A stretch of 64,000 bases of DNA from Nocardioides mangrovicus (lineage in GTDB: Bacteria; Actinomycetota; Actinomycetes; Propionibacteriales; Nocardioidaceae), in contig NZ_RDBE01000001.1 of assembly GCF_003674065.1 (NCBI RefSeq), positions 304,879-368,878 on the forward strand. Direction: 5' to 3'. Positions 904 to 64,000 of this stretch are shown here, piece after piece. The first letter of the stretch is position 1. Each line of letters begins with the position of its first letter. The translations under genes were made by a program, and so were the position numbers. The notes under the pieces were generated by a model, which made no database searches, was not told the origin of the DNA, and saw nothing but the letters and a program-made list of their open reading frames with translations.

Positions 904-935
904 GGGGGTTTTGCCGGGCACCCGGCAAAACCCCC
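904..935. terminator. Perfect 15-bp hairpin between convergent genes
   Basis: GGGGGTTTTGCCGGG (904-918), a 2-nt loop, and its exact complement (921-935). It sits between the stop of glmM and the stop of the leftward ankyrin gene, so it can serve both strands as a terminator. It is the core of a repeat of about 55 nt that recurs inverted at 56700-56753. Confidence 0.75.
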
Positions 936-56699: not shown

Positions 56700-56753
56700 A
56701 CCGAATCTGGAGCGAATTTCTCGGGGTTTGCCGGGCACCCGGCAAAACCCCCG
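56700..56753. repeat. Inverted copy of the 904-935 hairpin repeat
   Basis: The reverse complement of 56700-56753 matches 901-956 over about 55 nt, including the hairpin GGGGTTTGCCGGG/CCCGGCAAAACCCC (56723-56751) and the flank AGAAATTCGCT..CAGA. It lies between the stop of cbs and the stop of the leftward cobalamin-type gene. Confidence 0.75.
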
Positions 56754-60594: not shown

Positions 60595-61577
60595 TGATGC
60601 GCGCGCTCCGGCTGGCCGTCGTGGCCGCCCTCGTGGCGATCAGCACGTCGGCCTGCTTCGGGCTGGGCACCGCCGGCGGCTACGTGCCCACCGGGAAGCT
60701 CTCTGGCGCGGTGGCCGACGTGAAGAGCCTCGAGGGGGTGAACCTCTCGGTGGGCTCGAAGAACTTCTCCGAGAACATCCTGCTCGGCAAGATGGCCATC
60801 ATCCTGCTCCAGTCCGACGGGGCGAAGGTCAAGGACCTCACCAACATCCCGGGCAGCGCCTCCGCCCGCCAAGCTATGCTCGACGACCAGATCGACGGCA
60901 TGTGGGAGTACACCGGCACCGGCTGGATCACCTATCTCGGCCACGAGAAGCCGATCCCCGACGAGGAGAAGCAGTACACCGCCGTCCGCGACGAGGACCG
61001 CAAGAAGAACGGCCTGGACTGGCTGCAGCCGGCGCCGATGAACAACACCTACGGCTTCGCGGTCACCGCCGCGACGGCCAAGAAGTTCAACATCACCAAG
61101 CTCTCCCAGCTCAAGGACGTGCCACAGAACGAGCGCACCTTCTGCGTGGAGTCCGAGCTGATCAACCGTCCTGACGGGCTCAAGGGGATGCTGCAGACCT
61201 ACGGCGTCCCGCTCGGCTCGGGCGTGCCGCGCAGCAACCTGAAGACCTACCAGACCGGCGCGATCTACGACGCCACCGCCAAGGGCTCGTGCAACTTCGG
61301 CGAGGTGTTCACCACCGACGGCCGCATCGTCGCCCTCCACCTGAAGGTGCTCGAGGACGACAAGTCGTTCTTCCCCAAGTACAACGTGTCGTTCGTGGTG
61401 CAGAACGCGATCTTGAAGAAGTACCCGCAGATCGAGAAGCTGTTCGCTCCGGTGAGCAAGAAGCTGACCAACCAGGTGCTGCTCAAGCTCAACGCGAAGA
61501 TCGACGTCGACGGCGACGAGCCGGCCGAGGTCGCCTACGAGTGGCTCAAGCAGAACGGGTTCGTGAAGGACCAGTGA
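60594..61577 (+). CDS. Osmolyte-binding lipoprotein of the ABC transporter
   Basis: 327 residues. Signal LRLAVVAALVAISTSACFG with lipobox STSAC. Mature OpuCC-like fold: VNLSVGSKNFSENILLGKMAIILLQSDGAKVKDLTNIPGSASARQAMLDDQIDGMWEYTGTGWITYLGHEKPI, APMNNTYGFAVTAATAKKFNI and the late SFFPKYNVSFVVQNAILKKYP. Choline, carnitine or betaine are likely ligands. ATG at 60594 overlaps the permease stop; 60597 is also ATG. Confidence 0.93.
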   Translation: MMRALRLAVVAALVAISTSACFGLGTAGGYVPTGKLSGAVADVKSLEGVNLSVGSKNFSENILLGKMAIILLQSDGAKVKDLTNIPGSASARQAMLDDQIDGMWEYTGTGWITYLGHEKPIPDEEKQYTAVRDEDRKKNGLDWLQPAPMNNTYGFAVTAATAKKFNITKLSQLKDVPQNERTFCVESELINRPDGLKGMLQTYGVPLGSGVPRSNLKTYQTGAIYDATAKGSCNFGEVFTTDGRIVALHLKVLEDDKSFFPKYNVSFVVQNAILKKYPQIEKLFAPVSKKLTNQVLLKLNAKIDVDGDEPAEVAYEWLKQNGFVKDQ

Positions 61578-62086
61578 CGGAACGTCTCGACCCTCCGCTC
61601 CAGGGCAACGAGCGCGAGGTGCTGATGGGCTACCTGGACTATCAGCGTGCGACCCTGTGGCAGAAGGTGAGCGGCCTCGACGGCACCCAGCTGGCGAGGG
61701 TGCTGCCACCCTCGGACATGACGCTGGGCGGGATGCTCAAGCACTGCGCCCTCAACGAGGACTACTGGTTCTGCCACCGGGCGGCGGGCGGTCCCGAGGG
61801 CGAGCCGTGGGACTCGGTGGACTGGGACGCCGACCGCGACTGGGACTGGCACTCGGCCGCGCAGGACTCACCCGAGGAGCTGCTCGGGCTCTGGCACGCC
61901 GCCGTCGAGCGGGCCCGCGCTGCCGTCGCCGACATCGACCTGGCGACGCCGGCCGTCATCGGGCGCCGCGACGGGGAGCGCCCCAGCCTGCGCTGGATCG
62001 TGGTCCACATGGTCGAGGAGTACGCCCGCCACAACGGCCACGCCGACCTGATCCGCGAGTCGATCGACGGTGTCACGGGGGAGTAA
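61574..62086 (+). CDS. DinB-family protein (DUF664 type)
   Basis: 170 residues. LGGMLKHCALNEDYWFCHRAAGG (first metal His) and VVHMVEEYARHNGHADLIRESIDGVTGE (second His set) match the paralogue at 31338. GTG start inside the preceding stop (GTGA), so it is cotranscribed with the transporter though not obviously part of it. Confidence 0.87.
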   Translation: MTERLDPPLQGNEREVLMGYLDYQRATLWQKVSGLDGTQLARVLPPSDMTLGGMLKHCALNEDYWFCHRAAGGPEGEPWDSVDWDADRDWDWHSAAQDSPEELLGLWHAAVERARAAVADIDLATPAVIGRRDGERPSLRWIVVHMVEEYARHNGHADLIRESIDGVTGE

Positions 62087-62129
62087 CAAACCCCGCGGAA
62101 CAACCGTGAACTGACACGCGGGACGAACG

Positions 62130-62159
62130 CGGACAAAGTCTCCCAGTTGCCGGTATAGA
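62130..62159 (+). promoter_or_regulatory. Probable promoter of the MKEL-repeat unit
   Basis: CGGACA (62130-62135), an 18-nt spacer and TATAGA (62154-62159). TATAGA is the most AT-rich -10-like box between the DinB stop (62086) and the VOC gene (62604). Confidence 0.4.
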
Positions 62160-62408
62160 CGTGCGGTACTGGCGTTTTCGGTGGTACCTATGGGCCTGAC
62201 CGACGGGGGCCGGCCGAGCACAGGAGGGTGCATGCGGGACCCCGTCGCGCGCGCATCGTCGCGCTCATCTGCTCCGGCCCGATCGCGTCGGCCACGTTCA
62301 TGTGGTGTCCGCACCGTTCCCGGCGCGAAGTGCCACATGCCGCACGCCCGTACAGCCAGAGGTCGTGCGGTGTCCGATCCATGCGGACCCGCGAGGGAGG
62401 TGGCATCG

Positions 62409-62456
62409 ATGAAGGAGCTCATGAAGGAGCTGATGAAGGAGTTCATGAAGGAGTGA
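62409..62456 (+). CDS. 15-residue MKEL-repeat peptide
   Basis: It reads MKELMKELMKEFMKE, then TGA. Four tandem 12-nt units of ATGAAGGAG(C/T)T(C/G)-type repeat head to tail. GGGAGG at 62395-62400, 8 nt before the ATG, is a good ribosome site. Met/Leu/Phe at i, i+3, i+4 give an amphipathic helix. In the same frame a longer version of 74 residues could start at 62232 after AGGAGG, but its upstream part is Arg/Ser-rich and not protein-like. Each repeat also contains an internal AAGGAG before a further ATG. No known family. Confidence 0.5.
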   Translation: MKELMKELMKEFMKE

Positions 62457-62473
62457 CCTCCTCATGCCTCCGC

Positions 62474-62514
62474 ACGGAGCCGGCCGGGGTACCCCCGTTC
62501 CCGGCCGGCTCCGT
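62474..62514 (+). terminator. Hairpin after the MKEL-repeat frame
   Basis: ACGGAGCCGGCCGGG (62474-62488) pairs perfectly over 15 bp with 62500-62514, loop 11 nt; the tail TCTCCACTTCC is pyrimidine-rich. It starts 18 nt after the stop of the peptide and 90 nt before the VOC gene. Confidence 0.75.
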
Positions 62515-62603
62515 CTCCACTTCCTGGGGGGACACAGGCACCACCGCCGGTCGCACGCTGGGTCCCGTTCCGCGTCTCGGGCACGTACGCAAGGACCCCT
62601 GGC

Positions 62604-63035
62604 ATGACTGTGCGACTGAACCCCTACTTGAGCTTTCGCGGCACTGCTCGAGAGGCGATGACCTTCTACCAGTCCGTCTTCGGCGGTGAGCTCACGCTGA
62701 CGAGCTTCGCCGAGTCCGGCGCCCTCCAGGTGCCCGCGGAGGAGGCCGAGTGGGTGATGCACGGCCAGATCCGGCTCGACGACGTGCTGACCCTGATGGG
62801 TGCCGATGCCCCGACCGTCGCCGGTTCCGCGGCGGTCGGCGAGCAGCCCGACCCCGGTGGGTTCTCGGTCTGCCTCAACGGCGACGACGAGCCGCTGCTG
62901 CGCCTGTGGTGGGAGGGCCTGCGGCTCGGGGCGCAGATCCAGGAGGAGCTGAGCCAGGCGCCCTGGGGCGACTGGTTCGGCATGCTCGTCGACCGCTTCG
63001 GTGTGCACTGGATGGTCAACATCACGACCTCGTGA
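62604..63035 (+). CDS. PhnB-like VOC family protein
   Basis: 143 residues. RLNPYLSFRGTAREAMTFYQSVFGGELTLTSFAESG...VMHGQIRLDDVLTLMGADAP, and the late QAPWGDWFGMLVDRFGVHWMVNI, which is typical of PhnB/3-demethylubiquinone-9-methyltransferase-like VOC proteins. These have no proven enzymatic role in most bacteria. Confidence 0.9.
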   Translation: MTVRLNPYLSFRGTAREAMTFYQSVFGGELTLTSFAESGALQVPAEEAEWVMHGQIRLDDVLTLMGADAPTVAGSAAVGEQPDPGGFSVCLNGDDEPLLRLWWEGLRLGAQIQEELSQAPWGDWFGMLVDRFGVHWMVNITTS

Positions 63036-63059
63036 CGGCGCCGGTCACGACAGCACGAC

Positions 63060-63755
63060 TCACGACACGGTGACGGTGCGCTCGGCGGCCCCGCGCATCG
63101 CGCGCATCGCCGCGGCGAGCTGGTCGACGCTCCATCCGGTCTCGGTCGGCACCAGCTCGCCCACGGCGTCGCCGGTGGACCAGGCGCAGGTCGCTGCTTC
63201 GCCACGCGAGGTGCTCATGCAGATCCCGGCGGCGTCGCTGCCGGCCGCGACCTCCTCGACGTCGTAGCCCGCGGCCCGGGCGCTGCGGGTGAAGGCGTCG
63301 ATGAACTCGCCCGGGTCGCCGGCGGTGTCGATGGCGGCGCCGACGAAGACCACCGGGCCCGTCGGTCGCCCCGTGGCCGCGGTGTCGGCGACGTAGGCCC
63401 CGCCCACGACGCCGGCCAGCTGCTGGCCGAACCGATCGCGGAAGCCCTGCTGGGCGGTGCTGATCCGGCTGCTCAGGTCGGCGGTCGGGGTGGCGTCGCG
63501 GCTGAGCGCGCCGGCGTGGTCGGGCAGGTGCAGCGATCTGGAGCTGTGCTGCCCCGCGTGGACGGCGAGCGCCCCCAGCGTCGCTGCGATGACCAGCAGC
63601 GCGAGCCCGCACAGCGCGATCGGCAGCATCAGCGCGCGCTGGGCACGCGTGTCGTCGCCCGCGGCCGCGACCCAGCGCTCGTAGGACTGCCGCTGGCGCG
63701 GCAGGCGTACGACCGGTGCGGCGCGCTCCCCGGCAACGCGCGTCGTCTCCAGCAT
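63060..63755 (-). CDS. Single-pass membrane protein of unknown function
   Basis: 231 residues. A basic cytoplasmic N-terminus (VAGERAAPVVRLPRQRQSYERWVAAAG), one membrane segment (ALMLPIALCGLALLVIAATLGALAVHAG) and an outside domain (GPVVFVGAAIDTAGDPGEFIDAFTRSARAAGYDVEEVAAGSDAAGICMSTSRGEAATCAWSTGDAVGELVPTETGWSVDQLAAAMRAMR). Two Cys suggest a disulfide. The family is not recognised. ATG at 63755 follows a G-run. Confidence 0.75.
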   Translation of the reverse strand: MLETTRVAGERAAPVVRLPRQRQSYERWVAAAGDDTRAQRALMLPIALCGLALLVIAATLGALAVHAGQHSSRSLHLPDHAGALSRDATPTADLSSRISTAQQGFRDRFGQQLAGVVGGAYVADTAATGRPTGPVVFVGAAIDTAGDPGEFIDAFTRSARAAGYDVEEVAAGSDAAGICMSTSRGEAATCAWSTGDAVGELVPTETGWSVDQLAAAMRAMRGAAERTVTVS

Positions 63756-63923: not shown

Positions 63924-64000
63924 TCACAGCCGGTCGGTGAGCCGCGGCCGCGTCGAGCTCGGGGTCGGCTCCGGGGTCGGCTCCGGGGTCGGCTCCGGGG
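63924..64000 (-). CDS. C-terminus of a protein with a PEPT-repeat tail, cut by the window edge
   Basis: Reading leftwards from the edge the frame gives PEPTPEPTPEPTPSSTRPRLTDRL and a stop at 63924. The 12-nt tandem repeat CTCCGGGGTCGG (63957-64000) is its coding basis. Such Pro-rich tails occur in exported actinobacterial proteins. Frame choice rests only on the repeat and stop. Confidence 0.5.
   Translation of the reverse strand, partial: PEPTPEPTPEPTPSSTRPRLTDRL

What the first reader, a model, noticed from the sequence alone, without database searches (positions are those of the whole stretch)
62087..62603. Stand-alone unit encoding a tandem-repeat MKEL peptide
Between two ordinary genes lie a TATAGA promoter-like box, a 250-nt leader, four head-to-tail 12-nt units ATGAAGGAGxTx that read MKELMKELMKEFMKE, and a perfect 15-bp terminator-type hairpin 18 nt after the stop. 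Every unit is at once an ATG, an amphipathic peptide repeat and an internal AAGGAG ribosome-binding sequence. The last unit and the following CCTCCTCAT can pair (ATGAAGGAG / CTCCTCAT). It could be a small membrane-active peptide, a translational decoy, or a leader-type regulator. I know of no described element of this form.
Basis: partly seen in the sequence, partly recalled or inferred. Interest (0 to 1): 0.75.

Follow-up and report, generated by a model that had tools for sequence, protein, structure and literature searches.

The report
Fifteen-codon repeat peptide micro-gene
Between two ordinary genes of a GC-rich bacterium lies a 15-codon reading frame, MKELMKELMKEFMKE, with the strongest ribosome-binding match before any ATG in the 11% of that genome examined and a perfect 15-base-pair hairpin just after its stop; it is likely a real but lineage-private tiny gene whose peptide is predicted to form an amphipathic helix, and the searches found no relative of it.

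Summary
The repeat, frame and hairpin are real and where stated. The 15-codon frame 62409-62456 has a perfect Shine-Dalgarno (GGAGGTG). It is the best match of 6395 ATGs in 464 kb of this genome, and one of only 2 of 51 strong-SD mini-ORFs with a hairpin of at least 12 bp within 60 nt of the stop. This favours a translated micro-gene.

Other points weaken. "RBS in every unit" is normal Lys-Glu coding here (82 of 87 K-E pairs are AAGGAG; GGAG lies 3 nt before the next ATG). The leader is as structured as shuffled sequence, and the fold predicts the Shine-Dalgarno to be paired. No consensus promoter was found, and the hairpin lacks a U-tract.

No relative was found in 23 congeners, 340 family genomes, one genome for each of 84,980 species (exact pattern), viral contigs or phages. 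Classical attenuation is not supported: no antiterminator competes, and modelled ribosomes on the MKEL frame leave the hairpin intact. A ribosome relay into the VOC gene remains possible.

Verdict: probably a young lineage-specific small-protein gene; modest interest.

The parts
61574..62086 (+). Upstream gene: mycothiol-S-transferase (DinB-like) family, following the OpuC-type ABC genes
   Evidence: Pfam PF04978 E 2.2e-40; OpuAC PF04069 E 2.5e-63 at 60597-61574
62154..62159 (+). TATAGA, weak -10-like box; promoter role unproved
   Evidence: Only TATAGA in the window on either strand; no consensus promoter found
62166..62408 (+). Putative leader, if transcription starts near 62166
   Evidence: No excess structure: z 0.06 for 62163-62408; same-frame GC3 0.64-0.67 upstream of the ATG, so not coding in this frame
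62396..62402 (+). Shine-Dalgarno region (GGGAGGTGG) 5' of the MKEL start; last GAGG ends 8 nt before the ATG
   Evidence: -16.4 kcal/mol with anti-SD, 1 of 434 + strand window ATGs, 1 of 6395 in 464 kb; spacing
62409..62456 (+). 15-codon ORF MKELMKELMKEFMKE with stop TGA; three 12-nt units plus 9 nt
   Evidence: GC by codon position 0.40/0.00/1.00
62457..62471 (+). Anti-SD-like CCTCCTCATGCCTCC, able to pair with a repeat unit or with the SD
   Evidence: Base-pair probabilities
62464..62607 (+). Possible second small ORF (47 codons) whose TGA overlaps the VOC start (ATGA)
   Evidence: SD -9.3 kcal/mol and GC 0.81/0.70/0.70, so not codon-selected; chance control 22 of 1476
62474..62514 (+). Perfect 15-bp hairpin, terminator-like but without U-tract
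   Evidence: one of 12 perfect stems of 14 bp or more in 464 kb
62604..63035 (+). Downstream gene: VOC / glyoxalase-like family, with its own AAGGA 8 nt before the ATG
   Evidence: PF00903 E 2.9e-5; relatives align from residue 1

Best explanation
A 15-codon frame, MKELMKELMKEFMKE, with the strongest Shine-Dalgarno match of the 6395 ATGs examined and a perfect 15-bp hairpin 17 nt after its stop, is likely a self-contained micro-gene whose peptide is predicted to form an amphipathic helix. Likely working: a short transcript from somewhere upstream (promoter not identified) is translated from ATG 62409 and would end at or near the hairpin; the peptide would act in trans by laying one hydrophobic face (Met/Leu/Phe) on a membrane or a partner protein. 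The 12-nt array most likely grew by in-frame slippage. Shown: frame, SD rank, hairpin, absence of relatives in the collections searched. Inferred: transcription, translation, termination, helix, function.
For: SD energy -16.4 kcal/mol, best of 6395 ATGs in 464 kb; spacing 8 nt, inside the 5-9 nt bulk of strong-SD gene starts. Of the 17 other ATGs with SD -13 or better, 10 open ORFs of at least 100 codons, so such SDs usually mark genes. One of 2 of 51 strong-SD mini-ORFs with a hairpin of at least 12 bp within 60 nt. GC3 1.00 and GC2 0.00 in the frame, against GC3 0.64-0.67 just upstream. Hydrophobic moment 0.54 against shuffle mean 0.25 (1.4% of 20,000 shuffles as high). The differences between units keep a hydrophobic residue (CTC, CTG, TTC).
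Against: No relative in 23 congeners or 340 family genomes, nor in viral contigs or phages; the two genome-collection hits are read in another frame by longer ORFs. No consensus promoter. The hairpin lacks a U-tract; a paper title seen in a reference list says mycobacterial RNA polymerase needs one. The full-length fold predicts SD and ATG to be paired with 62286-62299 at probabilities of 0.9-1.0 apart from one SD base. GC3 of 15 codons made of copied units is barely independent evidence. Similar arrays are common in this genome. Most new short ORFs translated in M. tuberculosis were judged not under selection (PMC9094748, abstract and section 15).
Confidence: 0.45

Rival explanations
1. A non-functional proto-gene: the hairpin is likely just the 3' end of the OpuC-MST operon transcript, and the repeat is a slippage array that happens to be translatable, with no selected product.
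For: No relatives. Strong hairpins right after the OpuC operon are seen in 2 of 4 close OpuAC relatives, L058 (GGAGCCGGCC type, about 20 nt after the match) and L060 (about 90 nt after). Arrays are common (39 TRF rows of score 70 or more). Pervasive translation without selection is documented (PMC9094748).
Against: It does not explain the best SD of 6395 ATGs at the right spacing directly before the array. The hairpin is 387 nt from the MST stop but 17 nt from the MKEL stop.
Confidence: 0.3
2. A cis-acting ribosome relay for the VOC gene: ribosomes ending at TGA 62456 would restart at ATG 62464 (7 nt on), translate 47 codons through the hairpin and so melt it, and stop on the ATGA that opens the VOC gene.
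For: ATG 62464 has AAGGAG 10 nt upstream. Modelled ribosomes on this second frame remove all 15 hairpin pairs in 3 of 3 positions. ATGA overlap is described as the commonest coupling motif, and coupling persists, weaker, to about +40 nt (PMC12548453, passages). Only 22 of 1476 ATGA sites end an ATG frame of 40-55 codons.
Against: The 40-55 band was chosen after seeing 47 codons. ATGA follows from a Met-Thr start, present at 5 of the 16 VOC relatives printed. The second frame has GC3 0.70, not coding-like. VOC has its own SD-like AAGGA. None of 16 VOC relatives has a strong-SD mini-ORF followed by a hairpin upstream.
Confidence: 0.13
3. A classical attenuator leader peptide for the VOC gene: stalling in the MKEL codons would switch hairpin formation.
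For: Order uORF, hairpin, co-directional gene fits. Actinobacterial attenuators of this outline exist (PMC1262725 abstract; PMC13236596 passages).
Against: No competing structure: forbidding the two arms to pair with each other costs 42.1 kcal/mol and nothing replaces them; ribosomes modelled at 5 of 5 positions on the MKEL frame leave 15 of 15 pairs. No run of one amino acid tied to the VOC gene.
Confidence: 0.04
4. A ribosome or sRNA decoy: four AAGGAG units would bind anti-SD-like sequence as RNA, the peptide being incidental.
For: Units are SD-like (-8.4 to -8.7 kcal/mol before the inner ATGs) and can pair with CCTCCTCAT downstream.
Against: AAGGAG is this genome's normal Lys-Glu spelling (82 of 87). 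No Rfam match at gathering cut-off; with a loose cut-off only two sub-threshold snoRNA matches on the other strand.
Confidence: 0.03

Closest known systems
Lineage-specific short ORFs translated in actinobacteria (M. tuberculosis sORFs; PMC9094748, abstract and section 15 seen)
   Same: Short frame, no annotation, no wide conservation, in a GC-rich genome
   Different: Here a very strong SD, a pure four-residue repeat and a hairpin after the stop; no expression data
Actinobacterial attenuator leader peptides (ilvB, trp; PMC1262725 abstract, PMC13236596 passages)
   Same: uORF followed by a strong hairpin upstream of a co-directional gene
   Different: No antiterminator, no regulatory codon run matching the downstream gene, no conservation, no U-tract
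Translationally coupled ORF chains (PMC12548453, passages seen)
   Same: Short stop-to-start gap (+7) and an ATGA overlap
   Different: The linking ORF is not coding-like; coupling untested
In-frame 12-bp minisatellites inside coding regions
   Same: Period 12, copies differing at few positions; several in this genome
   Different: The array is nearly the whole ORF rather than a tract inside a long gene

Membership tests
Bacterial small-protein gene (sORF) | Good ribosome-binding site at proper spacing | tested here: met
   Strongest SD of 6395 ATGs, spacing 8 nt
Bacterial small-protein gene (sORF) | Frame or peptide conserved between species | tested here: not met
   0 of 23 congeners and 0 of 340 family genomes with three MKE-type units; 91-aa read-back frame: 18 candidates, none at E 1e-3 or better
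Bacterial small-protein gene (sORF) | Evidence of translation | not testable with these tools
   Needs ribosome profiling or a tagged copy
Transcription-attenuator leader peptide | Mutually exclusive antiterminator | tested here: not met
   42.1 kcal/mol cost with no replacement; 15 of 15 pairs kept under 5 ribosome masks
Transcription-attenuator leader peptide | Terminator between uORF and co-directional gene | tested here: inconclusive
   Hairpin present, no U-tract
Transcription-attenuator leader peptide | Regulatory codons linked to the downstream gene | tested here: not met
   No run of one amino acid; downstream gene is VOC-like
Intrinsic terminator | Strong G+C-rich hairpin | tested here: met
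   15-bp perfect stem
Intrinsic terminator | U-tract after the stem | tested here: not met
   Next bases CTCCACTTCC; terminator scan 0 in 61500-63200
Known structured RNA (Rfam 15) | Covariance-model match above gathering score | tested here: not met
   0 in the window
Type I toxin peptide (definition recalled) | Hydrophobic membrane-spanning peptide | tested here: not met
   Mean hydrophobicity -0.21 over 15 residues
Type I toxin peptide (definition recalled) | Antisense RNA partner | not tested
   No expression data

The most novel reading that the evidence does not exclude
The MKEL micro-ORF is the first stage of a two-step ribosome relay: its own last repeat unit is the ribosome-binding site for a second ORF, whose translation melts the hairpin and hands ribosomes over at ATGA to the VOC gene, so that the number of repeat units tunes expression of a neighbouring gene by slippage.
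Probability: 0.08. Interest if true: 0.65.

Novelty: new member of a known kind. Interest (0 to 1): 0.3.

Why it matters
If translated, it would be one of the simplest gene products known to me: a four-residue unit repeated under a near-perfect ribosome-binding site, a plausible snapshot of a gene being born from a slippage array. It would be a clean test case for whether such micro-genes do anything. If not, it is a caution: in GC-rich genomes every Lys-Glu pair looks like a Shine-Dalgarno.

Tried and rejected
Internal-RBS array or decoy: rejected on codon bias and spacing. Classical attenuation: rejected on folding. Long ORFs through the region: the 91-aa frame from GTG 62181 and the 153-aa frame from GTG 62228 have non-coding GC3 (0.67 and 0.70); the 91-aa frame has no protein relatives. 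A 35-bp match elsewhere in the genome (L005) lies in a sugar-binding-protein-like ORF and was taken as chance. The two one-mismatch family hits lie within longer ORFs (L036: a 230-aa ORF reading RPMKELVKEDL; L037: several overlapping ORFs) and were taken as chance. The two genome-collection hits L055 and L056 lie in longer ORFs that read the same DNA as EGVDEGVD and GGNEGGNE; an MKEL-type frame is also open there as a 48-aa (L055) and, with MKEA/MKEV, a 148-aa (L056) overlapping ORF, taken as shadows. Plasmids: query 61574-63032 hit 85 records; in the 20 rows listed the matches cover the MST or the VOC gene, none the intergenic unit. Synteny: none of 29 MST loci from other genomes holds OpuAC or VOC in its flanks (flanks about 1.5 kb, one shorter). 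Arrangement search in relatives: none of 4 OpuAC, 16 VOC and 12 MST loci (12 of the 29) shows a strong-SD mini-ORF followed by a hairpin. An earlier version of that search took minus-strand loci in the wrong orientation and is superseded. Literature: six searches; 'MKELMKEL' occurs in 0 papers of the held library; two multi-term searches returned nothing. A 15-residue peptide is below the size limits of the structure and protein-family tools, so no fold was predicted. Strain-level variation in unit number could not be tested.

Full report
What is there. Between a mycothiol-S-transferase-family gene (61574-62086) that follows an OpuC-type ABC transporter operon and a VOC-family gene (62604-63035) lie 517 bases that hold a 15-codon frame, MKELMKELMKEFMKE, at 62409-62456 and a perfect 15-bp hairpin at 62474-62514. 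The DNA array is three 12-nt units plus 9 nt. It is unique in the genome.

Is it more than chance? Tandem arrays of this score are ordinary in this genome: 39 of 267 TRF rows in a 464-kb sample (11% of 4.11 Mb; the window plus 20 stretches) have score 70 or more, overlapping rows included. The ribosome-binding site is not ordinary. The sequence GGGAGGTGG before ATG 62409 binds a recalled anti-SD with -16.4 kcal/mol, the best of 434 ATGs on the + strand of the window and of 6395 ATGs on both strands of the sample. Its last GAGG ends 8 nt before the ATG; of 56 strong-SD gene starts in the sample, 37 have 5 to 9 nt. Of the 17 other ATGs with SD of -13 or better, 10 open ORFs of at least 100 codons, so a strong SD is a fair but imperfect mark of a gene. 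Of 51 mini-ORFs of 6-50 codons with SD of -12 or better, only this one and one other (L097, 43 codons) have a hairpin of at least 12 bp within 60 nt of the stop.

Coding signal. GC by codon position is 0.40/0.00/1.00 in the MKEL frame, while the same frame upstream has GC3 0.64-0.67. This is what a gene looks like here (the 46 gene-like ORFs of the window average GC3 0.94), but the units are copies, so the evidence is thin. The unit differences (CTC, CTG, TTC) keep a hydrophobic residue. As a helix the peptide has hydrophobic moment 0.54; 1.4% of 20,000 shuffles reach it. Mean hydrophobicity is -0.21, too polar for a membrane span.

Lys-Glu is written AAGGAG in 82 of 87 cases in 289 gene-like ORFs, so the 'RBS in every unit' follows from the peptide; and GGAG lies 3 nt before the next ATG, seen at 3 of 56 gene starts. 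The leader 62163-62408 folds no better than shuffles (z 0.06; 105 of 200 shuffles as good or better), while 62163-62470 gives z -1.79 (5 of 200) and 62163-62520 gives z -3.28 (0 of 100), the hairpin being the obvious reason. In the full-length fold the SD and ATG are predicted to be paired with 62286-62299; without the leader the SD pairs with 62454-62461 or with 62466-62471. This counts against easy initiation, although predicted pairing is general in RNA this rich in GC. No consensus promoter or terminator is found in 61500-63200, and no TANNNT in 62087-62409. The hairpin has no U-tract; a 2014 paper title seen in the reference list of PMC8355165 says mycobacterial RNA polymerase requires one.

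Relatives. The 517 bases match nothing in 23 congeners; a 35-bp second match is in the own genome. Two exact units occur in none of 23 congeners; with one mismatch, 2 of 340 family genomes have a single site, inside longer ORFs. Three MKE-type units with free codon choice occur in none of 340. One exact scan of 84,980 species genomes gave two sites that longer ORFs read in other frames. Viral contigs gave 0, phages no match, and 18 candidate proteins for the 91-aa read-back frame gave none at E 1e-3 or better. The neighbourhood is not conserved: OpuAC or VOC lies beside none of 29 MST relatives. So absence in relatives says the unit is private or young; it cannot show that it is functionless.

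Mechanism. I commit to a lineage-private micro-gene with a trans-acting amphipathic peptide (0.45). Transcription, translation, termination and function are inferred. A functionless proto-gene beside an ordinary operon end is the main rival (0.30): hairpins follow the OpuC operon in 2 of 4 close relatives, and most newly found short ORFs in M. tuberculosis were judged not to be under selection (PMC9094748, abstract and section 15). A relay through the second small ORF 62464-62607 into VOC is possible (0.13): modelled ribosomes there remove the hairpin in 3 of 3 positions while 5 of 5 positions on MKEL do not, and only 22 of 1476 ATGA sites end an ATG frame of 40-55 codons; but that band was chosen afterwards, ATGA follows from a Met-Thr start (5 of 16 VOC relatives printed show it), and the ORF is not coding-like. 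A classical attenuator is disfavoured, since forbidding the arms to pair costs 42.1 kcal/mol without a substitute; the documented M. tuberculosis ilvB1 case depends on such a substitute (PMC13236596, passages).

Novelty. The sequence is new to every collection searched, and 'MKELMKEL' is in no paper of the held library. The kind, a short species-specific ORF, is known. Hence 'new member of a known kind', interest 0.3.

Noticed in passing
window 907-932 (exact) and 56724-56749 (one mismatch); 46 places genome-wide: A palindrome GGTTTTGCCGGGNNNCCGGCAAAACC occurs at 46 places in this genome (39 exact, 7 with one mismatch), five times as pairs 61-62 bp apart: a REP-like repeat family.
   Followed up: partly
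G000:C2:413432, C2:711905, C19:611970, C1:647537: A second palindrome, ACGTCATACGYCCCGGTCGC with 4-nt loop, 20-22 bp arms in the two sampled copies, at four places in this genome.
   Followed up: partly
window 63952-64000: Another 12-bp tandem array (CGGGGTCGGCTC, 3.4 copies to the window end); the next 13 bases of the contig read N.
   Followed up: no
L097:3751 (- strand): A 43-codon strong-SD ORF rich in Cys and His (CECGQALDCCHGQHCPRC) followed 29 nt on by a 13-bp hairpin: looks like an ordinary small zinc-binding-type protein.
   Followed up: no
window 62457-62471: CCTCCTCATGCCTCC between stop and hairpin is anti-Shine-Dalgarno-like and is predicted to pair with a repeat unit or with the SD itself, depending on how much leader is present.
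   Followed up: partly
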